From positions 806,001 through 870,000 of the forward strand of contig RCSZ01000016.1 in assembly GCA_014898425.1 (NCBI GenBank): DNA of 64,000 bases. Direction: 5' to 3'. This DNA is from Botryotinia globosa. Lineage: Eukaryota; Ascomycota; Leotiomycetes; Helotiales; Sclerotiniaceae. This document shows, piece after piece, positions 16,899 to 52,090 of the stretch (positions within the stretch are counted from its first letter, which is position 1; every line of letters starts with the position of its first letter). The translations under genes and the position numbers were made by a program. A model generated the notes under the pieces. That model ran no database searches. It saw only the letters and a list, made by a program, of their open reading frames with translations, and was not told the DNA's origin.

Positions 16899-18423
16899 CT
16901 ACAAAGCATCCTCCCCATCATCATCAACTCCCTTTCTATGCTTAACAGCAAACATTCCCTCACCCCTAATCTCAAACTCCACACTTCCATTCAATCCCTC
17001 TCCACTTTCCATTGCCCATCCCGCAAAAACGATTTTCATCCATCGTCTCCATCTTTTTAATACTGGTTCTCCTCTCTCCCCTTCCTCCATGATTTCATTT
17101 CTTGCTCGTCCATAGACGGGCTTTTTAATAAGTGCTATTCGACATGCTATTTGCGTGGTCCAGATTAGACCAAGAGAGGGTGTCTTGACGTTTTTGGACG
17201 AAGTATAAGAAGGGTGTGGATCATCACCCCAGCCTGTGAACCAGCGTTGTTGATGGTCCAATGACATAGGGTCTGGTGTTATGATGGAATAATCTCGAGA
17301 TCCTATTCGATTGCCAATGCTACCACCGGGGATACTTGACATAGGAGCATTCATCGAACTTGAAGGTATTGGCATAGCTCCATTTACGCCCAAGCTCCGC
17401 TTCGCAAGTGGACTGCTTTGCGTGTCTCTTTCCCTTTCTCTCTTCTGACCATAAGCCATCGGACTTGCTCTTCCGCTTCCGCCTGTGAATCGATCGGCTA
17501 CTTGATTGGCGACTACAATAGCCACTCCGTGTTCCCTTGCCAAGTTTCTTAACAGTTGTCCCAACTTGACTAATTCTGCACTTCTCTGAGCCATATTTCC
17601 ACCTCCTTTTGTCACACCAGGTCTCTCAAATTCAGCTCTGTAATTTGCGGCTACGCTATCTAGTATAAGCAATCGAATACCGTGACGTTTAATAGCGACA
17701 GGGACTTGGAAACGAAGAATATGATCTTGAGATTCGAGATCGGGTGTTGAGATTGAGATGACTCTGTCGAGAGAAGGTGGTGATGGATGAGAAACAAGAA
17801 GAGGGTGAGTGCTCAAGAGTTGGGATAGTCGAGTTATGGGGAGGGGTGATTCGGTAGATATGTAAAGAGTGGGAGCTGCGAGACCATGGGGTGCCGGAAG
17901 TTGAGCAGAGAGAAGAAGTGTGAGAAGGAATTGCGTTTTACCTGCGCCGCTGAAATTGTGAGTTAGTTAGAAGACTATGCAGACAAGGAACATTGAGATA
18001 TAGAAGTGAGATATACCTCTCGCCTGTGACCTCCGTAATATAGCCTGTTGGAATACCGCCTCCCAATGCGCGATCCATATCATCATCCAACGAACTTACA
18101 ACCTCCCACTTATCCACAACATCTTTTCCCGACTTCCTCAACTTCTTCACCTCTCTCTTTCCCTCTACATTATTTTCGCATGCTGCAGCATCTTTATCTC
18201 CAGAATTCACCTCACTTATCCCAAGGCCTCCTCTTAAATGCTCCAGTACATCTGCGCATAATCTTTTGACGTCTAAGAGAGGCAAAGTCGCACGCTTGGC
18301 TATCTCAACACAATCGAGAGTGAGCAGATCAGCGACGGTAACGAGATTCTTCTCCAGTGAAGGGAGGAGTCGCACATATTTTTGTGTGGGAAATTGGGGA
18401 AGGATATCTAGGAGGTCAGTCAT
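16899..18423 (-). CDS. rad57: Rad51-paralogue DNA repair protein, Rad57/XRCC3 type (2 exons)
   Basis: Exon 1 is 18423-18017 and exon 2 is 17949-16899; the 67-bp intron rebuilds Walker A as GES-GAGKTQFLL (about residues 133-145). The product is about 485 residues from the chosen ATG (MTDLLDILPQFP); an in-frame upstream ATG at 18468 would add 15. After an N-terminal helical region comes LDDDMDRALGGGIPTGYITEVTGE, typical of RecA/Rad51 paralogues, then Walker B RLLILDSVA (about 228) and a conserved IVVANQVADRF. The segment after that has a low-complexity Ser/Pro insert before LGLIWTTQIACRIAL. Rad57 partners Rad55 to help load and stabilise Rad51 filaments in nuclear homologous recombination. Rad57 rather than Rad55 or Rad51 is inferred from the GGGIPTG layout and overall size. 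Confidence 0.85.
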
Positions 18424-18821
18424 GGAGGCATTTGGGAAGCTAGGAAAGCATGGGAATGTATTGCGCAAAAGGAAGAAAGGCTAGAACGCGAAAAGGATCT
18501 CGCGTCGCTTGAAGTCTCGTATTCACGTGACTCGACAGTGTGATTTTTTTTGTTTTTGTCACAGTCGAAAGAGTTTATGGTCTCAAACTTGGGGTTTTCA
18601 GAGGTCTTAAAGTATTTACAATCTTTTGAATTCTTTTTAGATGGAACGAGTATTCGAAACTTTTGCGTGTATGTATTCCGTCAAATATGGAATTCTTCCT
18701 GATCCTTTGCTTCTCTGATTGAGCAAGTGTATCTTATCTTATCTGATTCTCTTATCGGCGACACTACCCCGATAATAGCTTAGCGGTATTTAGGACCTTG
18801 AGGTGGGGAAGATTTCAACAT
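18424..18821. promoter_or_regulatory. Upstream region of rad57
   Basis: About 400 bp between the rad57 start and the end of the truncated MFS gene on the same strand. It must contain the rad57 promoter and the MFS 3' end. No recognisable regulatory motif beyond T-rich and TATCTTATCTTATC (GATA-like on the minus strand) near 18732-18748. Confidence 0.35.
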
Positions 18822-19578
18822 CTACTCTGCAGCCGCCACTTCTACATCGGTTCTCTTTCCCGATTTTTCGGGCTCTGTGAATAAAATCTAGATGCTATTA
18901 GCATTGCTGATACTTTATTGTTTCAATTGTTCTACTTACAACTGGTATTGCAACAGTTGCAGTCAAGATTCCAAGACTTGAAACGAAAAATATCCAGCTT
19001 CTCTCTCCAAAGGCGTAACTAGTCCAAGCAGGGCCGGCAAGAACTCCCGCTGCACTAGCACTGGTATATAAGGAGAAAACTTGACCGCTAGCTCCTGTCT
19101 TACCGAAAATGTCGGGTGTCTCCTTTTCCATACTTGCTACCGCTCGACTCAAGTCAGCACTTAATGGTGATGAACCGAAGACTCTGGCGACGCCTATGAT
19201 TCATATTAGTAACTGCGAAAAGCAATGATCATACAACTGGAATGGGACAAGGTTACCATAAAGTGTAAGAAGGATACCAAGCCCAGCAATCTGATCAGTG
19301 CTATTCCTATGTATCAAGACGAGCAAGACAGTGAAGATAGCAGATGTGATGAAGTATGATGCAGTGAGCCATCGAGAGGGCCAGACATCAGAGAGTTTAC
19401 CAGCTATCGGGGCTAAAAAAAATATGGGAAATGTTATAGTCAAGAAGATTGAGCCAGCACCGGTTGAGTCCCAATTGAACTTTCGTTCCACAAATATTGG
19501 GAGAGCTGCATCGAAACTTGCGAGCAGAAATACAGTCACCCAAACACCGTACAAATCAGCTCCTAGACACACAAACAT
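18822..19578 (-). pseudogene. C-terminal half of a major facilitator transporter (N-terminal half missing)
   Basis: Three blocks splice in phase: 19578-19257, 19193-18940 and 18872-18822 (introns GTAACC...TAG and GTAAGT...GAG). They give about 208 residues with six predicted membrane segments, SFDAALPIFVERKFNWDSTG at the start of TM7, a GKLSDVWPSRW loop after TM8, and a charged tail VPEKSGKRTDVEVAAAE. This is the C-terminal six-helix half of an MFS DHA-type drug/metabolite transporter; full proteins have about 450-550 residues and twelve helices. Upstream DNA (19579-20370) reads as no transporter in any frame, so the first half is gone. It lies head-on to the NRPS at 20374, the usual place for an export pump of a secondary-metabolite cluster. 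A functional half transporter is unlikely but cannot be excluded. Confidence 0.75.
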
Positions 19579-20373
19579 CAGAGAAATTGATCCATGGTCT
19601 CAACGTGGCGTCATTACTGCCCCTTACGGAAATGACTGCACTAGATTGAACCATATGCGCCAGAAGAAAGAGAAAAGTCAACAAGTCATGTGGGTGTTCA
19701 GTGATGTACGATCCTAGATGTTTTGAATTGATCTTTCAACCCCTTTCCCATATGATTTAATGGACGCCGGCTCAGTACACTATGCAGCTACCAGGCAGGA
19801 ATCTTATGATGCATATGGAACCAAGGTTAACGCATTGGAGTTACAGGAGATAATACGAATGAGCTGAAAGAGTCTCGCGACAGATTCCCATCCGCGCCGG
19901 GATGTGACTACATCGAGCGTTGAAACCTGCGTGGTCAAATCTGAACGTTGAATGACGAGAGCATGTCATGTAGAATTAACGCCATGTGCTAAGGCTATTC
20001 AGGGTATACACTCTCAAAGCCAGGGCGCGTGTCAAATGGGAAATGATACACTCCAAGCCCGCAGGCTGGGGCTGCAGTTCATCGCCCGTTGATCTATGAA
20101 GATCAGCTTTGGAAGCTTTGATGGCCGAGGAAATTTATCGGATGGGAGCTCGGATAAATGATTTATAGCCCAGGTCTCATATTTAAGAACCGAATGATGT
20201 TGAAGAATAAATTGTGAAGAGATTCGTCTGTGTTCAACATTGAAGCTCAATTCGAAGATTACAGTCTCTGACAGTCAAAAACGCTTCCTCTTCGTGTCTT
20301 GCTTTAGGTAAGTTTTTTGACCACTGAGGCCTTTTCGCGTGCACTAATGAATTTGAATTGCTTAGAAGTTATC
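19579..20373. promoter_or_regulatory. Divergent region between half-MFS and NRPS, with a probable NRPS 5' UTR intron
   Basis: No gene is visible. At the right end GGTAAGT (donor G at 20308) pairs with a CACTAATG branch point at 20343-20350 and acceptor GCTTAG at 20361-20366. That suggests a 5' UTR intron of about 59 bp just before the NRPS ATG at 20374. The TTG and ATG triplets inside that intron are then not start codons. Confidence 0.5.
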
Positions 20374-23300
20374 ATGAAATTAACAGCTAAGCACTTCTCT
20401 CCCGGCCCCATTCAGAGGGACCAACGCCAGGTCAAGGGAGACCGCGTTGAGAAATCACACTCTGCGATGGATTTGGATCTTGCATCTAAACACTATCTTT
20501 CAGACCTCCTCCACACCGAGCGTCGTCCAGCGCAATCCACAGACATGGATAATTACCTCAGCCAAGGGGAAGGTTCTGTCAAGCCATTCTCTCTTCTGGA
20601 TCCTACGCAGAACCCTGATGAAATTCGAAGGCAAATGCCATCAGATGCAACATTCATCGATGTCTACCCTTGCACGGCTCTTCAAGAAGGGTTGCTGGCA
20701 CTATCAATGAAGGATTCCGGCAGTTTTACTCCTCAAATAATATGCAAGCTCCCCAAAGGCATTGATTTTAATAAGTTCAAAGCTGCTTGGCAGAGAACAG
20801 TCGATTCAAATTCGACACTTCGAACTAGTTTCGTTCAAACGCATACTTCAGGCCTACTTCGAGTAGTTTTGGCGCCAGAACCCATCCTCTGGTCCGAAGC
20901 GATCGATCTCGAAAGCTACTTGAGGAAAGACAGAATTATCTTCCCTTCATTCGGAAAGCTCCTATTGAGATACGGTCTCATTCAAAGCCACTCATCTGAT
21001 TCATTATGTTTTGTCTGGACTTTTCATCATGCCGTTCTTGATGGATGGAGCATGCGCTTGGTACTTCGACAAGTCGAAGAATCGTACCGAGGAGAGACTT
21101 TTCAACCGCTGGTGGAATTCAAGCGTTTCATTGCCCACCAAATGAGACTTGAGAAGCAATCACAGAAAGCGAGCGAAATGTTCTGGAGTAATCATCTAGC
21201 AGATATTTCGGGGGTACAATTTCCAGTTGTCCCATCACAACATCAGTCGCGTGCGAATGGCTATTCGGAGAGATTTATTCCCGTGAAGGAAAACCTATTG
21301 GCCGGTGCAACGACCTCTACAGCTATACAAACTGCATGGGGAATCCTAGTAGCACGACGTACCGCTGCGACGGAAGCTACTTTTGGTCTCGTGCTTGCAG
21401 AGCGAAATGCAAAGATTGCAGGTCTCGATATGAGAAGAGTAAATGGTCCAACATTCAATTCACTACCGATGCGAGTAATTATTGAGGACCAAAAATCTGC
21501 GAAAAATCTATTTGCTTTGGTTCATGATTCTCGAGTCGCCATGAAACCACATCAGCATCTTGGCCTACAAAATATCCGTAGGCTCGGAGCGGACTGCACA
21601 AAAGCTTGCAGCTTCCAGAATCTACTCGTTATTCAACCCAGATTAGAGAGAGATCCCAACAGTATATTCGGCGCCAGAGAGAATACTAGTGACCACTGGG
21701 CAAAGTTGAATGCTTATCCTCTCATGATGCAATGTGATTTGCTGGGAGATGGCTTCACTGCAATGGCCAGTTACGACTCTCACATTTTATCTGATCAAGA
21801 AGTCAACATTCTGCTGGAACAATTTGACAACATCATCTCTCGTTTGTCCGATGCAAACACACTGGTTGGTGATATAGGGCTGACAACAGAAAGCCCGCAA
21901 GAACAATTAGCAATTCAAGAAACCGATGCTGAAGAGGTCCATTCTTGTGTCCACGAAGTCATTCGGCGGAGTGCGCAAAGCCGCGGATCCGATGTAGCAG
22001 TGACATCTTGGGATGGGGAATTGCCGCATTCCCGATCGCATTCTATATCTGATCATCTAGCATATCTTCTACAGCTTTGTGGTGTTGGACCCGAAATCAA
22101 GATTGCACTGATCTTTCAAAAATCTTTGTGGGCTGTAGTAGCCATGATGGCAGTGATGAAAGCTGGAGGAACTTTTGTCCCTATGAGCCCCGACCATCCT
22201 GAGAAGCGAATCACAACGCTAGTAGAGCAAATAGGTGGCGAAATGATCATGTGCTCCGAAAGTCTCTTCCCCTCGTTCGAGGGCATCGCAAAGCAAACAT
22301 TTGCTGTGGGAAAATCAATGCTCGAAAATTTGCCCCAAGGGGTGCTAGATACAAGTGTTCAGCCAAACAGTTCTGTTTATATTATGTTCACTTCTGACAG
22401 CACTGGAGAACCGAAAGGATGCGTTATAGAGCATGCTACTTGCTGTGCTACTATGCGTCACCTCTCTAATTTCTCCAGACTCAATCCTCAAAGTCGCACT
22501 CTTCAGTTATCGGCATATACTTTTGATGGCATGGTTTTTGAGATCCTTACTACTTTGGGTGTTGGAGGCGTTGTTTGCATACCTTCAGACGACGAGAAAA
22601 TGAACAACATTACATCAGCGATCAACAGAATGCAAGTTAATACTGCATTCATGACACCTGCGTTTGGAAGATTGATCCTTCCAGAATCTGTGCCAACTCT
22701 AAAAACTCTTCTTATAGGGGGTGAAAAGGTAATCCAAGAGGATTTGGATCAATGGCTCGGGAAGTTACGGTTATTACAAATGTATGGACCTACCGAATGT
22801 TGCTGTAAGTTCCATTATGTTTTTCCTCGCCATACTCATACCTACGTTGGTTTTCCATGTTAATCCCCTATGCAATCTGGCCAATGCATCGTGATCTAAT
22901 TTGTCCTTATTTTCCTCTAAAATTCTCCTTGGTGCGCAGCTACTGACTGTGTAATGCTACAGGCATGTGCATTGGTACTGAGATCACTGAGAAAGATCTA
23001 AACCCTGCTAGAATGGGATCTGGTTTCATCGGAAGTTTTATTGTGCTTGACAAGAACGGCCAATTAGCTCAAAGGGGAACTGCAGGTGAATTGTTAATTG
23101 GTGGACCACTTGCGAGGGAATATCTCAAAAATCCCGGAAAGACGGAGGCATCATTTGTGCCTACGCCTTCTTGTATCCCTGCTGAATCTACTCGATGGAA
23201 AAGGTGGTATAGGACAGGTGACTTGGCCAAAATGGATGCCGATGGATCAATCGTATATATCTCTCGGAAAGATGCGGTAAGTGATATCCCTATTTTGAGC

Positions 23301-26300
23301 CTTAGTTATTTCTCTTGAAATTCCTTGACATGAAGTTCATTTCAACCTCAATTTTTAATGCCCGGAAACATGGTCCAGCTGGAAAATCCCAGCAGGTTTA
23401 AACCTGTTCAGGATCCTTTCTATTCGATTGAAGTCCTCCGAAACTCCACACACAGCTGGGAGAAACATACCATTCAGTGTCCTAGTAGTGACTGAGATCG
23501 TATACTAAATATATTGTAGGGTGCACAAGTCAAGCTAAACGGCCAAAGAATTGAGATGGGTGAAATCGAAAGTCATCTTCACAAAAATCTAGACAATGTT
23601 ATAGATCTTGCCACAGTGATAGCAACTCCTGTGGACGGCAGGCCACCGTTCCTAGCGGCCTTCTTGCGTTTTAGAGATGGCGGTAACAGTAGAGAAAAGG
23701 AAGAAAGCTCACTTTTCAAGAAGTGCCTTGATGATTCAATCGTCCGATCACTTCTTGACCGCTTGAGTCTTGCACTACCACAATACATGATACCAAAAGT
23801 ATACATACCCGTATCATCGATACCGCTTACTATATCTCAGAAGTGTGATCGCCAAACCCTACAGACTCTTGCAGCTAGCTTGACGCCTTCAGAATTTGCA
23901 TATTATTCTGGTCAAGATGCTACACACTCCGCTCCTCTGACCAACAACGAGCTTCAAATGCAGCGTCTATGGTCCAATATTTTAAAAATGCCAACAAATA
24001 GTATAGGCAGGAATGATAGTTTTACACGTCTTGGTGGGGATTCTATTCTTGCTATGAAGCTCGTTGCAGCTGCACGAGAAGATGGCGTAAAGTTGACGGT
24101 GGCAAACATATTCCAAAGTCCAATCCTATCAGACTTGGCCAAAACAGTGGTGGATGTCAATTCCTCTACAGTTGTCGCACAGGATAATACCCCTGCATTT
24201 TCTATGATTGGAGGGCGCGCTCAGCTGCTGAAAGCAACTATTGACGGTGGTCTGAACCCAGAGTATGTTGAAGACTTCTACCCATGTACTCCTTTTCAAG
24301 AGTCCATCATGGCACTATCAATGAGCCATCCTGACACGTATGTTGCACAACACGTTTTAGAATTATCCAAGGACATATACTCTAATATTGACAAGTTCTG
24401 TGACGCTTGGAATGAAGTTGTACGTTCGAATCCAATTCTACGAACGCGTATCAATCAGCATGAAGCAGCAGGCCTGGTGCAAATGGTGATTAGAGGAGAT
24501 GTTACATGGGAGGTGCAAGATAACCTCCAAGGATATCTGGGATCTGATAAAGCGCAGCCTATGGGCTTAGGAAGTCCTCTCAGCCGCTACTGTATTGTCG
24601 AAGAGACAATCTCAGCCGATCATAAGTATTATTTCGTCCTTACCCTACATCATGCAGTATACGACGCCTGGAGCATAAACTTGATGCTTCAACAGGTGGG
24701 AAAAGAGTATGGAAGACTCGCGCACATTCCTACGAATGATACCAACTTATTTCAACCCCAAAATATACCGTTTAATCGTTTCATGAAGACTATTGTCGAT
24801 TTAGATCGATTTGTAGCAGAAAACTTTTGGAAATCAGAGCTTGCGAGTGAAGACGCAAAGATTTCACATTTTCCAAGCATCAATTCTGGGTACCAGCCTC
24901 AACCTGGTACAATAGCCATCAAAGATATCAAGTTAGTTCGAGAGGCTAATTCCGACTACCGAATTTCGAATATTATCCGAACATCTTGGGCGATTGCCAT
25001 AAGTAACTACTCCAACTCTAACGACGTCATCTTCGGAGAAGTCTTGACAGGACGTACTGGTTCATCAGCCGATCTGACTCGAGTAGTTGGACCTACTTTA
25101 GCTACCGTTCCAGTGAGTAAATCTTTCACATTTTCGGTCTGTTATGAAATAGGATGTGGATGTTGTTGAATGTGTCACTTTGTCAATTTTTCGGCTTTTT
25201 ATGTCACCTCAAACATGTATCCTATGTCTTTCCACATTTTCTATCAAATAGAGCGCCTGAGATGATTGCCCTTCAATATGAAGTCATGTCACCAAATTTC
25301 TGGGAGTAGAATGGGCATCTTGTATTTCGTGCGGCTATGTACTGACGTTTCAATTTATAGGTTAGGATCACATTGGATCCTCAGGGCACAACTCTTGATC
25401 TACTTAAGAAGGTTCAGGCTAAAATGATCCAGATGATGCCCTTTGAGCAGATTGGTCTATCCAACATTCAACGACTTGGCGAAGGACCGAATAAGGCATG
25501 CCAGTTCCAGAATATCTTGGTCATACAACCTAGAGAAAATTCAGCCATTGAAAACTCATTTATGGGACGACGTCGAATGGATCTTGTGGAAGCAACTGTA
25601 TGGGATACAAATGCTTTAACTCTAGAATGCAACCTTACTGAAGAGGGAATCAAGGCCAAAGCAATCTTTGACCCGGAAATTATAAACAGTCGACAAATGG
25701 AGAGAATACTCTCTCAGTTTCAGCATATCCTCCAGCAATTATGCCATGAAGACGCAGGAAAATCTGTCCAAGATATCAACTCTATCAGTGAAGTTGATCT
25801 AGCGCATATTTGGGAATGGAATTCTACATTACCAGAGGTAATGACGTCTTGCGTACACGAAGTTATTGACATCATGACAAAGCAAGATCCTCATGCCCCA
25901 GAAATTGCCTCTTGGGATGGCGATTTGACTCGCGCTGAGCTACATAGTCTGTCATCTCGTCTAGCGTCTCAACTGATGAAGTATGGAATAGGGCCAGGAA
26001 GCAAAGTGCCTCTATTCTTCACGAAATCAAAATGGGCCATCGTAGCTACACTGGCTACTATCAAGTCTGGAGCTGCATTTGTACCCTGCGACCCTTATCA
26101 TCCTCGGTCACGCCCCATTTCACTTATTCAACAAGTTAAAGCTCAAGTAATTCTCTGTTCAAGCGATGTTTGGCAGTCTTGCTTAGACCTGTTTCATCGC
26201 GGTAAAACAGTTGTGGTGGGGAAAGGTGAGATGGAACTGTTACCAACGGCAACAGACATTATGAGCAATGTTAGCCCCGTGGACCCTCTCTACATATGTT

Positions 26301-29071
26301 TCACCTCAGGGACTACTGGGACTCCGAAAGGTACAGTAGTGACCCATGAAGCATATTGCTCAGGCGCGAGAGATCATGGTAAAGCGCTTCACTTTGGACC
26401 AACTTCACGATTTTTACAGTTTGCGTCCTACAGCTTCGACACTTCTATCGAGGACATTTTGACAACCCTGATGACGGGAGGCTGTCTTTGTATACCATCT
26501 GGTAAGTACTACTGATCGCCTTTAAATCGAATAAAGCTAACCGGTACACTAATAGAGGGAGAACGGACTTCAGATATTGTGGGAGCAATAGCTAGAATGA
26601 ATGTTAACACAGCAGACCTGACACCTTCTTATATAAGCTCAATCTCACCTGACTCTGTTCCTACATTGAAGCGAATAACTCTTGGTGGAGAGCCTATCAC
26701 TGCTAATGTCATCAAAACCTGGGCAGATCGCGTTCATTTGATTAATGCCTTCGGAACTACCGAATGTTGCGTGTAAGTGTATACCCAGGTTCTAGATTCT
26801 TGATCGAAACTTGTAATCCATGTTCTTTCCTTCCTTTTACTTGAGGCGTAATTTCTCTGTCTTAGCTCCTTTAAATTTAGCGATCAAACTGATCTAACTG
26901 TCTTCTAGAACAAGTGTAGTCAATGCAGATATCTCTCTCAGCACATCCCCTACAAATATCGGACGTGGAGCAGGCGCAGTCACTTGGATTGTTGATACTG
27001 AAGATTCAAACCGACTTCTACCGATTGGCACAATTGGTGAACTGCTAATTGAATCACCCGCCATGGCCTCAGGATATCTTGGCGACGAGGTGAAGACTAG
27101 AGCCGTTTTATCGATAGTCCCAAATGGGCTCGTAATCTTGGCTCGAGTCACCGTCCTACACGTCTTTACAAAACCGGCGATCTTGCCCAATACAATTCTG
27201 ATGGGACAATCAACTACCTCGGCCGCAAGGACACTCGAATCAAACTTCGGGGACTTCGCATAGAAATTGCTGATGTGGAGCATCACATACTCAGTCATCC
27301 ACAAGTTAGAAAAGCCATGGTTGTATTGCCTACTTCTGGACCATATGCTGACCAGCTTACGGCCATTATTGAGCTCGAAAGCTCAAAAGACTCGGAGGTG
27401 GCCAGTGGTATTGCGGTGGTTTCTCATTTAGAACTTGAAGCTTCCGGATCCAAATGGTCCCGAATTGCCAATCATCTGTTAGATCACCTCCCAAGCTACA
27501 TGGTTCCTTCTTCTTGGGTTGCTATGAAGACCATACCACTTCATACCTCCGGAAAGCTAGATCGTCCTAGACTCACCAAGTGGCTTAATAGTCTTCCGGT
27601 GATCCAAAAAGCTGAGAGTTATCCCAAGAGCAGCGAAGCACCTTTATTACCATCGAATGAGCATATTGCATTTGAAACCAGCGATAAAATTGCACAGCTT
27701 GTTGCTATGAAGCCTTCATCACACCTCAATTCCGATATTATAGGTCGTGATGTTAACCTTGCTTCTATTGGAATCGATTCCATCAAGATCATGTCCCTTG
27801 CAGCTTTCATTAAACGATCGTATGGAACAATTATACCTATGCCCAAGCTCATCAACTATCAGACCACAATCTCGGATGTTTCGAAACATATTCGTGCTGC
27901 GACTAATTTTAAAGGCGAAAAACCCATAGCTTCAGTACCCACCCTTGATTTGATGCAAGAAATCACCGATCTAGACATGCAGTTAGCCTCGATGCAGCAT
28001 TGCTTTGGAGTTGTTTTCTTGACAGGTGCCAGCGGATTACTAGGTACCCAGATACTTCGAGAACTTCTTGAAAGGCCTGGCGTTAAGAAGGTTATTGTGC
28101 ATGTACGCGCTTCATCCAATGAAAATGGTGAACAACGGATCACAACAGCGGCGAAATCCGCAAGATGGTGGCATGAAACTTTCGCAACGAAACTCGAAAT
28201 ATGGACGGGAGACTTAGCTGAACCTATGTTAGGTTTGAGTTTCGGACAATGGCAAAAACTAAGCACAGTCGATGCCATAATCCATAATGGAGCTTCAGTG
28301 CAATGGAATGCGGACTATCAAACTCTTAAAGCTGCCAATGTCACATCTACCTTTGATATTCTGAAGAATATTACAGGAGCTGTTTCGCCTCCGAAATTTG
28401 TCTATGTATCTGGAGGTCGTGATTTTGAAGGAGAGATGGATGATAATATGACCGCCATGAAATTGAGAGAACTTGATGGTTACAGTCAAACAAAGTTCGT
28501 TTCAGAGCTGATGGTTAGAAACTTTGCTCAACGAGCCACATCTTTTGCCCAAGGCAATCACGTCTCTATCGTCAAACCGGGACTCATCATTGGTACAATC
28601 CGGGAAGGAGTTGCTAATACCACTGACTTCCTATGGAGATATGTAGCTGGCGCAATAAACGTCGGCGCATATCCTATTCCAGACAAAAATGATTGGTTGA
28701 CTGTTGCACATGCGGATTTCGTCGCAAATTCTACTATCAATGCCTTGGTCAATACTCCCAATCACTCAAATTATACATTGGATATAACTGGTGGAATCGA
28801 TATGCAGCGATTTTGGGATATTGTCAATAAAACTATGGGGCATCAACTTCGCCCGACTAATTCAAATGAATGGGCGAAGTTGATCAAGAAGGACATGGAG
28901 AAGAAGACGGAAGCCCATCCGCTCTGGCCGGTAGCTCATCTTATCACTGAGGAAGGTAATTTGGGCAAGAGTAAAAGACCAAGGGAATTGGATACTGTAT
29001 TTGAGAAGCAGATAGAGGAGGCGATCAAGAAGAACGTGGAGTATTTGAACGAGATCGATTATTTTAGGTAG
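20374..29071 (+). pseudogene. Dimodular non-ribosomal peptide synthetase C-A-T-C-A-T-R with a frameshift in the second A domain
   Basis: Six exons fit: 20374-22804, 22963-23276, 23520-25112, 25361-26501, 26556-26772, 26909-29071. Domains in order: condensation 1 (YPCTALQEG near 20663, HHAVLDGWS near 21025); adenylation 1 (FTSDSTGEPKG near 22387, YRTGDL near 23210); carrier 1 (LGGDS, Ser codon 24042); condensation 2 (HHAVYDAWS near 24648); adenylation 2 (FTSGTTGTPKG near 26299, YKTGDL near 27170); carrier 2 (GIDS, Ser codon 27779); terminal NAD(P)-dependent reductase (TGASGLLG near 28022, YSQTK near 28481). Between 27104 and 27107 the frame must shift by one missing base, from KTRA to FIDSPKWARN; unshifted, translation ends at 27263, losing carrier 2 and reductase. 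Repaired length would be about 2.6 thousand residues. An intact enzyme would join two amino acids and release an aldehyde or alcohol reductively. The product is unknown. If the frameshift is an assembly error this is a normal gene. Confidence 0.85.
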
Positions 29072-32455: not shown

Positions 32456-35400
32456 ATGACGCCAGCCCCGGGTACTTTGCCTACTCGCTTTCCATGCTGG
32501 TGCCGAGCTATATATTCCTTCAGCGGAGAGGTAAGTGCAGTATACATTGCGATTTTCTACAGTCTAGAGCTCTAACCATACGATTGCGCAGTCAAAACGC
32601 GACTTGGGCTTTATTGAGGGGGATTTGATAGAATGCTTGAACGCAGGAGATGGATCATGGTGGATGGGTCGATTGCGGAGGGACAAGAGAGTCATGGGAT
32701 TGTTTCCTTCGAATTTCGTGCAAGTGCTGGATGAGAGTTTTCGACCAACAAGTAGGACGTCGAGTCCAATGCCGGATCGAAGTCCCAGTCCAAACCCTTT
32801 CAAAAATCCAACAGCTCCGACGAAGCCCAAGACAAAATCGATGCGAAAACCATTCCAAGCATATGCTGCGCCAGATATGGGGGCAATAAAGAGGGCGGAG
32901 GCTAGGGAAAAGGAACGTCTTGCGAGTTTGAGTTCTCGAATGCCATCACCAGCCGCCAGGGGTGGACATGTTGGAGCAAGGGCGCCTTCTCCTCAACCCC
33001 AGCCTCCTCTATATCAGTCGCGGATGCGCTCGCCAGCACCGTTTTCTCAAATTCCAAGCTATGCATCTCGCGCACCCTCTCCAGGGCCAAGTCATTATAC
33101 ATCTCGCGCACCATCTCCAGGACCAAGCCATTATACACCCCGCGCTCCCTCACCTGCGCCAAACCATTACACTGCTCGTGTGCCTTCGCCTGCGCCTAAC
33201 CATTATTCTGCTCGCATACCTTCTCCTGCGCCCAACTATTACAACCCTCGTGTACCGTCTCCTGCGCCAAATCACTACACATCCCGCGCCCCATCTCCCG
33301 CTCCTAACCATTACATATCTCGTGGGCCGTCTCCTGCTCCTAACCATTACATATCTCGTGGGCCGTCTCCTGCTCCTGACCATTACATATCTCGGGGGCC
33401 ATCTCCCGCTCCTGACCATTACGCATCTCGTGCGCCCTCGCCTAGTCCCAACCAGTATGGATCCCGTGCTCCTTCTCCTGCTCCCTCGTTTGGTTACCAA
33501 AGTTATTCTCGAGGTCCATCGCCTGCGCCTCAATTTGACAGAGGGGGTACCTCGTCTCCACCTCCACCTCCACCGCCTCATCGCAGCACTTATGCTCCCC
33601 AAGCATCTAGAGATACATATGAAAATAATACGAACTCGTATAATATACCATTGGCAGTATCACCATGTCCACCATCGCCCGCGGGTACAGGACGCACTCC
33701 CTCCCCCTTGCGAAGTGCAATGGATGATGTAATGCTGTCTTTAGCAGATATGGGAGTAGCTCGAGAGTCAGAAATTCCGGAAGCACCAATCGATCCATGG
33801 TCTCCTGAGGCATTTGATCAGACGTACATATCATCAAAACGTGCACCTAGATCTAATACAGCTATTGCAATTCCTGAAGAATATAATTCACCAAGTGCTG
33901 ATAACTACGCCAATAACATGCAACCTTACCAACCTACAAACACTCCCCCACCTCAACTTAGCAATTACGTTCAAAGAATGGAGAATAGATTAAGTAAAAT
34001 GTATTCCTCGACGTCTCGTTCCCCAAATGATGATGTTCGACCAGCAGTCCCTCCTAAAGCGAGTTCGTATGCTTATGAGAGCCGACCAAAATCGTCTATG
34101 AGTATAAATACACAGTCAAGCAAGCTTCGCCACCGGAAATCTGCATATGAAGTTGGTAAATCTATGCTGGGGAGGACTTTCACAACAAGAACAGACAAGA
34201 CAGATTCAACAAGCTCTTCCTCTGGTACTCGTAGTACCACTACTAATGGAAGCTCGAGTACTCAAATGACTGACAAAAGTCTCATGAGTGGACCTTCTGC
34301 TAGTGGCATCTCTTCAACTAGTGCTGGAAGCTTAGCCAGGAAGCGGGAATTGCTGTATGGTCGAGCTCAAAGTGCACTTGGCTCACGAAAGGATAACTAT
34401 CTGGGGATGAATAACAGTCAACCTGATTTCACTACTGGCCGGTCTCAGACGCCAATGACCGGCATTTCATATCACAGTAGTCATGCTTCAGATCCTTCTC
34501 GTATGCAGTCACCAACTGGCTGGCCAGGTACTGCAGCAGATTCTAATGCTGCTCTCGGTGGTCTCATGACACCCAAATCCAAGAAAAGCGGGTTCTTCAA
34601 AAGAATGGTCGAGTCCGCAAAAACAGGTGCTGCGAGCGCTAGGAGCAGTATCGCTGTTGGTGAATCTTCCAGACCACGAGTTCAGCCTCACAGTTCATTT
34701 CCAGCGGGAACTACGTCAATGGGGGGTGGTGGTTTTGGGAACATACCGAACTCTAATCCCTCTACTAATGATGTTGGACCTGGAGGTAGCACCGTAGGAG
34801 TCGATTGGGTCCAGGTACGACGAGACATCAACAGATCGAATTCTTTAAGTAAAATTGAGCGAGTTGAAAGAAAGGAGAGATGCCAGATGATGGATTATCC
34901 CGCCATAAGTCCTGTGGAAGAGCTTCTCGAGGGGTGCGATGGTGATGAAGGAGTTGATGGTAATCCAGTCGCCGAGCCCACCAATTTTCAAGCAGTAAAC
35001 CTCAGCCTGGTCGACAAGAACACAAGATTCATCAATAGCCTTCCACCCATGTCTAACCCTATGAGCCTAGCCACAGGCTATGTGTGTCGACCATATAGAA
35101 GCGATATCCAGCGCTTACGAGCAATATTTACATGGGTTAGCGAGAAGATCACATGGGAAGAGGGCTTCGATAACGACACTGCCGATTCAAGAAGGGTGAT
35201 TCAGACCAAACACGGTTCTTCCGAAGAAGTCGCATTTTTAGTCATGGATATGTGTAAAGCTATTGGGATACATGCAGAGGTTATCAGAGGATATCTCAAA
35301 TCGCCTGGTGAAGTACCAGACATGGGCCCCATGCCTCGACCTAATCATTTCTGGAACGCAGTTGTGATTGATGGAGAATGGCGAATAATGGATTGTTCTT

Positions 35401-48881: not shown

Positions 48882-51800
48882 GGTGTTGTATATATTGATT
48901 ATGTTCACGTGAAATGGATGAGGAGGATAGGTGTATAAACAAATATGGAATTGTTGATAAGTTTCGAATTTAACTGAAATCTGGTGTGAAGGAGTTTAAG
49001 AAGTAAATAATGGGTAATGACGTACAAGAAGCAATTCTGGCACAATGCAGGTGTTCATAAATATTTATTACCCCGCCATCTTATCTTATATCTTACCTAG
49101 GTATCCTTGGATGTCAACGTTACACCACATCCGCCACTTGTGTTAACCTCCGCTGTATGCAATATCATCGGAGCTACTAGATCGAGAAGTCCGACGGGAC
49201 AATACAGACTCATCCGGATTCCAAACAATTGGTGTACACATGCCCAATTTAACCATTCAACATAGATATCACAATCTCATTATCGTTCTCCATTCAACTG
49301 ACGGTTGATATCCTACAGCTCTAAGTACTTGAATAAGGTTACCAATGCTTACCAATCCTCGCATTGCTCCACCATTGATTTTCCAAGCTGGTCTGTCAGA
49401 ATAGAGCCATAGATTTCTTCCCCAAGGTATCTCGTCTTCCTACGCAGAGGCATGAGTATGGGAAGGCAAAATCAGTTGATATTGGATGGGGAAACGTGAA
49501 GAGGTTGACAAGAAATATATTCGCTAGTGCGGATTGGAAAGGGGCAATGGGGAGAATGCAGGAAATGAAGATCATATAAGCGGAGATGATATTGATACTT
49601 CGCGAGATTAGAAGAGAGATGCAATAGTGAAATTATGACCGGAGGAAAAGGAATCTATGACCTACTTGAGGGCTACGGAAGTCGCAAACGAATATCCATT
49701 TGGGGAAGTAAAAACAAATAGATCATCTGTAAAAACACATGCCGATGGGCTATCTGCTCCCATACGCCGTTACGAAATATTTGGAGGAAGCTCTCAAATT
49801 CGCTAAGCCAGCTCAATATGACGAGTTGGCCGAATCGAAATGGCGCAAGAAACTGACCCGTCAAATTACACATCTCCTGATACTACAACCCGTTCTCCAG
49901 ATTACATCAGTATGAGCAATCCTCGAAATGTAATTAGTTCTTTGAATCTTTTGCAAGAGAAGATTGGAAAGAGGGGGAAAACAGAAGCAAGGTTCTGAAT
50001 GATGGATTAGTATTAGAAGAGTCGGTTGAACAAGGAGCTAGTTCAACAAGAGTTCTGGGGGAGATTAAAAGGCGGGAGAGAGAGAGGCGGCGGGACAGAA
50101 AGCGTGTAAGATGTGGAGAAGAGGAGCCACGATAGAGGAGAGGGAGAGGGAGAGGGAGAGGGAGAGGGAGAGGGAGAGGGAGAGGGAGAGGGAGAGGGAG
50201 AGGGAGAGGGGAGAGGGAGAGGATGAGGGAGAGGGAGAGGGAGAGGGAGAGGGAGAGGGAGAGGGAGAGGGAGAGGGAGAGGGAGAGGGAGAGGAGAGGG
50301 AGAGGGAGAGGGAGAGGGAGAGGGAGAGGGAGAGGGAGAGGGAGAGGGAGAGGGAGAGGGAGAGGAGAGGGAGAGGGGAAAATTAAAGAGGATATTGGAA
50401 AAAGAGCATGGCGGTCTCAAGAGGGTGGATTGGTCCAGTTATATGGGAATAAAAAAACGGGGAATAGGGATCGAGAAGAGAGAGCGGAAAGATGACGAGG
50501 AGAGGAATAACACAATGACTTCTACGTAAACCTTTTTTCTTTTTTTCTTACTTCAGCTCGGATCTTTAATCTTTAATCCGAATTATATAAACTCGTGTTC
50601 AAATTTCACATATCAATATTCCTCTCCACATAACCCATCGCAACAGAGAAATCCACGTCCTATTACAAAATCAGATTCAGGAGGACGCGGAAAAAACGTG
50701 GATTTTGGTAGAGATGCGAGAAGCGCGCTGAAAAGAAATCACACAAACGAGTTCCAAAATACCCACGGAAAAGATTCACCTCAAACTATCTATTTCAATG
50801 TCTATTATTCAGCAGTCTTCTCGACGTCATCGAGACTTTATCCATACGTGAACTCTCCATCGCTGTTCGTATACAGTACAATGAACTTGGTTGATTCATT
50901 AAAAGGATAGATATGATACGATATGATGAATTACTCTCAGGATACTGGGGTTGGGATTGGGATGGGTATTTGAAGTAACTATAGGTTTATAGAATAGGAG
51001 AAAAAAATGGTTCGGTTCGATTCAGCGAGGTGTATATATGTGTGTGTGTAGTGGTATATGATGATTCAGAATATATATGTAACTAGTAGGAATATAGAGT
51101 TGATATGATATGAATACTTACAAACACCTAGCCACGCATCAAGAAGCGAGAGGATAGTATCGAGGGGTTAGGTTGGAAGTGTAATGTGAATGAATGGATG
51201 TGAAATATTGGCAAAAAAATAGGACTCAAGAGATAGAGTCATCATGAAACATGGTGAGGAGATGAGTATCGGAATGATTGATCGAGATGGGTATATAACA
51301 ATTTTCACAATATAAAGCACGAGTGCTTCAAAGAGAGAGAAAGTACACTCACTCTAAAAAATCCGAACTATGTATCATGATCGTAGACCATGCTAGCGAG
51401 GAAGATGATGAGATGGGTAGTTTTGCGTCTATATATTCGTATGTGTATATGTAGGCATATATATACATACACATACGTGAATGACAGTATGAAAATCAGT
51501 ATGAAAATCAGTATGAATACCACAAGCTAACTAATACGAAAGAGAACACGACACGAATATGGAGACAGTGAGTGTGTAGATGAGGAAGATTGAGAAAGTG
51601 ACGTGCTTATGAATGTGTCGTTTTTGCTTTTGACAAGAGGGGTGATAGATATGGTTTAAGTCTGCGAGGAGATCATCGTGCTGAGGATGTTACGAAGGGG
51701 GTTTTGTTTATAGGAAGAGTTGTCCAAGAATCTTCTTTACAGCTACTTTGTATGGTTAGGTAGAAACAATGTATATTTATCTGTTGTATTTGTGTTCTAT

Positions 51801-52090
51801 AATGGGTTCTTTGATGTTGGGTGAGGGAGGTGTGTTCGTCTTTTTCCAGGAGTGGATTGGGGAATAAAGGGGGAGGATGAAAGGGCACAAAAGAAGAAAA
51901 AGAATCTTCGACAGGGCAGATTTTGAAAACGCGCCATGTACACCTTAATCAATAGAAATATATATTTTATACCATGTGAGAGAATATAGACTTCAATTTA
52001 TGCGATATGCATCGCCTCGCGTTCAAAGCTATCTAAAAGCGGCGTTTTCCCGAAAAGATCAATCCCAATGCAGATGAGTTACGTGCTTTC
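48882..52090. other. 3.2-kb gene-poor region with a GGGAGA satellite
   Basis: Upstream of the oxidoreductase and downstream of TBCB, both on the minus strand. No protein family motif is seen. It contains the purine-only satellite at 50135-50380, ATATGTAT strings near 51010-51090 and 51430-51480, and an imperfect repeat of TATGAAAATCAG near 51488. It could carry noncoding transcripts. Confidence 0.45.
50135..50380. repeat. GGGAGA hexanucleotide satellite, about 245 bp
   Basis: About forty copies of GGGAGA with a few breaks (GGGGAGA near 50208, GATGAGGG near 50222, GGAGAGGAGA near 50290 and 50362). One strand is all purine over nearly 250 bp, the other all pyrimidine. Open Arg-Glu and Ser-Pro frames across it are repeat products and are not called as genes. 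Confidence 0.97.

What the first reader, a model, noticed from the sequence alone, without database searches (positions are those of the whole stretch)
27100..27120. Single-base frameshift inside the second A domain of the NRPS
Frame reads ...GYLGDEVKTRA up to 27104 in one phase, then FIDSPKWARN and everything to the reductase in the next phase. The exon lengths I read sum to one base short of a multiple of three. The lesion sits at a T run (GTTTTA), where a T5 to T4 slip would explain it. Unshifted, the protein stops at 27263 and loses carrier 2 and the reductase. Either this strain cannot make the product, or the assembly has a homopolymer error, or the ribosome shifts.
Basis: partly seen in the sequence, partly recalled or inferred. 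Interest (0 to 1): 0.75.

Follow-up and report, generated by a model that had tools for sequence, protein, structure and literature searches.

The report
Broken peptide-synthetase gene in Botrytis globosa
In this assembly of the mold Botrytis globosa, a gene for making a small peptide is read out of frame and the neighbouring export-pump gene has lost its first half, while related molds keep the peptide gene whole, so the fungus has probably lost this compound, an ordinary kind of gene decay.

Summary
The frame break is real in the assembly. The window is from a fungus, taken to be Botrytis (Botryotinia) globosa. A dimodular NRPS (C-A-T-C-A-T-R) runs 20374-29071. Five GT-AG introns fit, yet the exons total 7859 bases, not a multiple of three, and the frame changes once, at 27104-27107. 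The nine relatives aligned (2485-2630 aa) have no gap there. No plausible intron was found, and a ribosomal shift has no structural support. Two independent changes favour decay over an assembly slip alone. The divergent MFS transporter next door keeps only a part matching residues 291-496 of a 496-aa relative; no close copy of the rest was found in window or genome. Module 1's ATP-binding A3 motif has Asp where 261 of 261 motif hits in 120 relatives have Gly. Otherwise the gene matches B. narcissicola at 86-99% per exon, 93.2% overall, with no other break, so the loss looks recent. An assembly error at this one base cannot be excluded without reads. Verdict: probably a young pseudogene in a decaying two-gene secondary-metabolite pair; a known kind of event, low interest.

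The parts
20374..22804 (+). NRPS exon 1: condensation domain 1 and most of adenylation domain 1
   Evidence: Pfam PF00668 and PF00501; aligns to residues 1-811 of P0002 at 728/811
22396..22398 (+). Asp codon in the A3 (P-loop) motif of adenylation domain 1, where all nine aligned relatives have Gly
   Evidence: column G675; 261 of 261 A3-motif hits in 120 relatives carry Gly
22963..23276 (+). NRPS exon 2 (C-terminal part of A1)
   Evidence: 89/103 identical to P0002; no Pfam match on its own; splice sites
23520..25112 (+). NRPS exon 3: rest of A1, carrier 1, first part of condensation 2
   Evidence: PF00550 and PF00668; 504/531 identical to P0002
25361..26501 (+). NRPS exon 4: end of condensation 2, first part of A2
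   Evidence: the condensation match, 24.5 bits, is below Pfam's cut-off of 30.6; 364/380 identical
26556..26772 (+). NRPS exon 5 (A2)
   Evidence: 24.4 bits, below Pfam's cut-off of 29.9; 72/73 identical
26909..27104 (+). Start of last exon, upstream reading frame (A2, up to the frame break)
   Evidence: 63/65 identical; no Pfam match on its own
27104..27107 (+). Frame break
27261..27263 (+). First stop codon met if the upstream frame is kept
27107..29071 (+). Rest of last exon in the other frame: C-terminal part of A2, carrier 2, thioester reductase
   Evidence: PF00550, PF07993; 620/654 identical to P0002
18825..19575 (-). Truncated MFS transporter: matches residues 291-496 of the 496-aa relative P0123 between 19560 and 18825; the upper limit 19575 is approximate
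   Evidence: tblastn with six relatives; whole-genome search

Best explanation
This is most likely a recently inactivated (unitary) NRPS pseudogene. The intact gene in relatives encodes a C-A-T-C-A-T-R synthetase. By domain logic it would load two amino acids, possibly join an acyl starter, and release the product reductively as an aldehyde or alcohol; that chemistry is inferred from the domains and the product is unknown. In this B. globosa assembly a small indel in A2 changes the frame. The translated protein would stop after 2016 codons and lack the C-terminal part of A2, carrier 2 and the reductase, so the product could not be completed or released. The neighbouring transporter has lost its first half, and A1's ATP-binding motif carries a probably damaging substitution, so the locus seems to be decaying as a unit. 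Shown: the frame change, the truncated transporter, the Asp substitution, continuous relatives. Inferred: that the break is in the living strain, that A1 is impaired, and that the changes belong to one history of decay.
For: Frame change confirmed, other exon junctions clean. Nine relatives (Botrytis, Sclerotinia, Stromatinia, Ciborinia, Monilinia laxa, Clarireedia; 2485-2630 aa) have no gap in the 41 columns around the break. Of 26 MFS relatives found, 19 are 420-531 aa. The window copy matches only from residue 267-326 onward in the six of them that were tried; no match to the earlier part lies in the window at E 0.01. In the genome the best matches reaching that part are 41% and 43% identical. 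Consecutive locus tags put an MFS and this NRPS side by side in Ciborinia camelliae, Clarireedia jacksonii and Monilinia fructigena. A3-motif Gly to Asp. Relative rate against B. narcissicola: 81 window-unique residues to 53 (outgroup B. cinerea, p 0.019) and 88 to 59 (outgroup B. porri, p 0.021). An intact NRPS frame of the same genome gives 68 to 84 and 61 to 69 against B. narcissicola. Fisher p 0.009 for one chosen pairing. Precedent: 401 B. fabae genes are at least 10% shorter than in B. cinerea, and one-base frameshifts are 63 of 170 classified mutations (PMC10971195, section 3.5 read).
Against: No reads, so the one-base lesion could be an assembly error. The part after the break is still 94.8% identical to B. 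narcissicola, with 5 changes in 414 columns invariant in six relatives, so there is no sign of long disuse. The rate excess is modest and not specific: the control NRPS of this genome also looks faster when compared with B. galanthina (99 to 68, p 0.020; 79 to 52, p 0.023), and the presumably working B. cinerea gene shows as many changes at invariant columns (51 of 1636, 9 radical) as the window (51 of 1622, 18 radical). Not all MFS relatives are full length: five of 26 are 310-347 aa, among them that of Ciborinia. Loss of an MFS pump need not stop synthesis, and the effect of the Asp substitution was not tested.
Confidence: 0.8

Rival explanations
1. The frame break is an assembly or consensus error at a short homopolymer; the NRPS of the strain is continuous, although the transporter and the A3 motif are still altered.
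For: Small lesion at a four-base run; flanking sequence well conserved; no reads to test it. The control below only bounds errors loosely: up to about 0.4 expected in this 7.9 kb gene at the 95% limit.
Against: Eight other open frames of the genome that match the A-T-reductase query, together 19250 codons or 57750 bases, are unbroken by construction; breaks outside those frames were not looked for. A missing half gene and a substitution in the same locus are not homopolymer errors.
Confidence: 0.17
2. The ribosome changes frame here (programmed -1 shift) and makes a full-length protein.
For: A CCCAAAT heptamer lies in the right phase at 27119, a few codons past the break.
Against: No sign of a stimulatory structure in the 120 bases folded: z-score 0.09, 108 of 200 shuffles fold at least as well; pseudoknots were not modelled. 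In-phase heptamers occur by chance: 4 in 2588 codons of the gene. The nine aligned relatives read straight through.
Confidence: 0.01
3. An unrecognised intron restores the frame.
For: 143 GT/GC-AG pairs of at least 36 bases and the right phase exist in the stretch scanned; the 40 shortest were printed.
Against: No donor fits GTRNG(T/A) between 26950 and 27300. The shortest candidate, a 41-base GC-AG pair, has no CTNAY branch-point-like motif and would remove about 14 residues; the shortest GT-AG pair is 68 bases (about 23 residues). The nine aligned relatives have no gap there.
Confidence: 0.02

Closest known systems
Orthologues of the same NRPS, e.g. P0002 (B. narcissicola, 2619 aa), P0003 (B. 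porri, 2619 aa), P0004 (B. cinerea, 'NRPS protein', 2597 aa)
   Same: P0002 is collinear with the window pieces; the three are 95%, 90% and 89% identical to the stretch after the break
   Different: Continuous reading frame and Gly in the A1 A3 motif
Degenerated secondary-metabolite genes of Botrytis fabae G12 (PMC10971195)
   Same: Lineage-specific truncation of genes, often by one-base frameshifts (section 3.5 read); Table 3 lists truncated PKS and NRPS genes, among them a two-gene peptide cluster with a truncated NRPS (passages)
   Different: Different species; whether that two-gene cluster is this locus was not determined
Paralogous NRPS-reductase on contig C9 of the same genome (C9:347032-349119)
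   Same: Matches the A2 end, carrier and reductase at 36-43%, with MFS matches about 8 kb away at C9:337610-338965
   Different: Its matched frame is open over 1141 codons; a separate gene

Membership tests
Fungal NRPS with terminal thioester reductase | C, A and carrier domains followed by an NAD_binding_4 reductase | tested here: met
   on pieces searched apart; two of seven pieces gave no match and two of the partial matches (PF00668 in piece 4, PF00501 in piece 5) are below Pfam's cut-off
Unitary pseudogene | Continuous orthologues in close relatives | tested here: met
   neighbouring MFS by locus tags in three species
Unitary pseudogene | Disabling lesion and no close second copy in the genome | tested here: met
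   after the gene itself the best match is 36% identical (43% for its second piece); only the best candidates are scored
Unitary pseudogene | Lesion present in the living strain | not testable with these tools
   no reads or second isolate held
Unitary pseudogene | Relaxed constraint | tested here: inconclusive
   81 to 53, p 0.019; control comparisons disagree
Programmed -1 frameshifting | In-phase slippery heptamer | tested here: met
   CCCAAAT at 27119
Programmed -1 frameshifting | Downstream stimulatory structure | tested here: not met
   z 0.09; pseudoknots not modelled
Programmed -1 frameshifting | Two-frame arrangement conserved in relatives | tested here: not met
   nine of nine aligned relatives continuous

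The most novel reading that the evidence does not exclude
The ribosome shifts by -1 at the in-phase CCCAAAT just past the break, giving a full-length synthetase with a few altered residues: a programmed frameshift in a fungal nuclear NRPS, used as a throttle on a metabolite.
Probability: 0.01. Interest if true: 0.75.

Novelty: new member of a known kind. Interest (0 to 1): 0.25.

Why it matters
It marks a secondary-metabolite locus that relatives keep and B. globosa is probably losing, and shows that the loss reaches the neighbouring transporter. It adds one case to gene decay in Botrytis, already described for B. fabae (PMC10971195), and warns annotators not to count this NRPS as functional in B. 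globosa without checking reads. It opens no new mechanism.

Tried and rejected
Intron restoring the frame: rejected. Ribosomal shift: unlikely. 5' truncation of the NRPS, suspected because it begins with a condensation domain: rejected, since eight of nine aligned relatives start at the matching Met and are 2597-2630 aa. Insertion of a repeat between transporter and NRPS: 19570-20370 has no second copy in the genome by a search that skips simple repeats. PDB comparison of one exon piece gave ordinary NRPS hits, linear gramicidin synthase first, and was not used. Naming the B. cinerea gene number (Bcnrps1-9) was not settled: Bcnrps1 is described as a 1592-aa mono-modular protein (passages of PMC8467525), and the passages seen of PMC9920419, PMC11173184, PMC5821092 and PMC3158057 give no architecture that settles it. 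The four papers listed were not opened. The 2020 Botrytis cluster comparison that I recall as the likely source of the genome is not held.

Corrections made on checking: two radical substitutions first counted in exon 2 were read-through into an intron and were dropped in the recount. The heptamer count (3 in 2363 codons) used a wrong phase for one exon and is replaced (4 in 2588). Exon 2 identity is 86.4% when trimmed, not the 81.8%. None of these changes the odds. Of the 120 relatives listed, nine were aligned; P0010 and P0011 (short models) were fetched but left out, and P0013 and P0014 (also short) were not inspected.

Full report
What the window is. The window lies at 806001-870000 of contig C16 of a 45.7 Mb assembly in 27 contigs. 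An NRPS frame on contig C13 of that assembly is 100% identical over the queried part to protein EAF00_009390 of Botryotinia (Botrytis) globosa, whose listed contig length, 2045532, equals that of C13. I take the organism to be B. globosa (Sclerotiniaceae).

The gene. Pieces of the open frames match, in order, condensation, adenylation, carrier, condensation, adenylation, carrier and thioester reductase domains; two of the seven pieces have no match and two partial matches are below Pfam's cut-off. The start Met is at 20374 and the last stop ends at 29071. Five introns with GTAAGT or GTGAGT donors and AG acceptors (22805-22962, 23277-23519, 25113-25360, 26502-26555, 26773-26908) give continuity with the B. 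narcissicola relative P0002. The exons total 7859 bases, remainder 2 on division by 3.

The break. The last exon is read in one phase to 27104 and in another from 27107. Each side aligns on its own to adjoining residues of P0002: 63 of 65 identical before, 620 of 654 after. Window pieces cover 2617 of 2619 residues, without gap or stop in the aligned stretches, so this is the only break found. The search with the stretch after the break gave 2128 proteins among 6303 candidates, 120 listed. Nine relatives of 2485-2630 aa were aligned, and none has a gap in the 41 columns around the break. P0010 (1872 aa, Monilinia fructigena) and P0011 (1784 aa, Sclerotinia sclerotiorum) are shorter models, fetched but not aligned.

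Alternatives to a lesion. Of 143 GT/GC-AG pairs of at least 36 bases and the right phase, the shortest is a 41-base GC-AG pair without a CTNAY motif that would remove about 14 residues; the shortest GT-AG pair is 68 bases. No donor fits GTRNG(T/A) in 26950-27300. A slippery heptamer, CCCAAAT at 27119, is in phase. However, the downstream 120 bases fold no better than shuffles (z 0.09, 108 of 200), four such heptamers occur in 2588 codons of the gene, and the aligned relatives show no two-frame arrangement.

The neighbour. On the other strand between 19560 and 18825 lies an MFS transporter remnant. It matches P0123 (496 aa, B. paeoniae) at residues 291-476 (86%, a figure that counts an intron as gap) and 476-496 (95%). 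One search found 26 relatives, 19 of them 420-531 aa, five 310-347 aa and two longer; six were used for tblastn. In those six the match starts at residue 267-326, and nothing before that is found in the window at E 0.01. In the genome, searched with P0123, the best matches reaching that half are 41% and 43% identical, on C14 and C9. The remnant also has one extra residue against all six relatives. Neighbouring locus tags place an MFS and this NRPS together in Ciborinia camelliae, Clarireedia jacksonii and Monilinia fructigena; the Ciborinia MFS model is itself short (347 aa).

A third change. At 22396-22398 the A3 motif of A1 has Asp in place of the Gly found in all nine aligned relatives. In the 120 listed relatives 261 of 261 motif hits have Gly. 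The pattern requires the rest of the motif to fit, so degenerate motifs are not counted. That the change impairs ATP binding is inferred from the general role of the motif, recalled and not tested.

How old. At 1622 columns invariant in six relatives the window differs at 51 (18 radical) and B. narcissicola at 38 (12 radical); [quoted passage not shown] narcissicola. For comparison B. porri has 36 of 1621 (5 radical) and B. cinerea 51 of 1636 (9 radical), so the window stands out in radical changes but not in total. Relative-rate counts against B. narcissicola are 88 to 59 (outgroup B. porri, p 0.021) and 81 to 53 (outgroup B. cinerea, p 0.019). For the C13 NRPS frame the comparison gives 68 to 84 (outgroup B. 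cinerea, p 0.22) and 61 to 69 (outgroup S. sclerotiorum, p 0.54). A Fisher test of one chosen pairing, 81:53 against 68:84, gives p 0.009. Against this, with B. galanthina as partner that control frame is also faster in this genome (99 to 68, p 0.020; 79 to 52, p 0.023). Relaxed constraint is suggested, not shown. The stretch after the break is well conserved, so any loss is recent.

Assembly error. Eight other frames of this genome that match the A-T-reductase query are open over 19250 codons in total. They are open by construction, and breaks beyond their ends were not looked for, so this bounds the error rate only loosely: up to about 0.4 errors expected in this gene at the 95% limit. The half-missing transporter and the substitution are not homopolymer errors. 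They raise the odds that the frame break is real but do not prove it.

Known context. In B. fabae the predicted proteins of 401 genes are at least 10% shorter than in B. cinerea, and one-base frameshifts make up 63 of 170 classified mutations (section 3.5 of PMC10971195 read). Its Table 3 lists truncated or deleted key enzymes, among them a two-gene peptide cluster with a truncated NRPS (passages). Whether that is this locus was not determined. A search of the held library for 'Botrytis globosa' with 'genome' found no paper, and the 2020 cluster comparison that I recall is not held, so I cannot say whether this lesion is in print.

Verdict. Probably a recently broken NRPS in a decaying NRPS-transporter pair; confidence 0.8 that the lesion is real and inactivating. 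Known kind, interest 0.25.

Noticed in passing
G000 C9:337610-338965 and C9:347032-349119 (L018, L006, L003): MFS and NRPS-reductase matches about 8 kb apart on contig C9 of the same genome, 31-43% identical to this pair: a possible paralogous pair.
   Followed up: no
P0011 (Sclerotinia sclerotiorum) and P0010 (Monilinia fructigena): Orthologue models are much shorter (1784 and 1872 aa); the S. sclerotiorum model has Gln for the Lys of the A2 A3 motif and lacks a stretch at the carrier 2/reductase boundary. The gene may be decaying there too, or the models may be faulty.
   Followed up: no
P0140: The Monilinia fructigena MFS model (777 aa) also carries PF08423 (Rad51 family, name recalled); the window's neighbour at about 16899-18480 (-) looks RAD51/RAD57-like by eye, so this is probably a fused gene model.
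   Followed up: no
window 49934-52000: Simple-repeat tract (PLPLPL and SLSLSL frame at 49934-50416) and GC skew 0.44 over 50001-52000.
   Followed up: no
window 33000-33600: Tandem RAPSPAPNHYTS-type repeats within a 1284-codon open frame that looks like a CYK3-type protein (name recalled).
   Followed up: no
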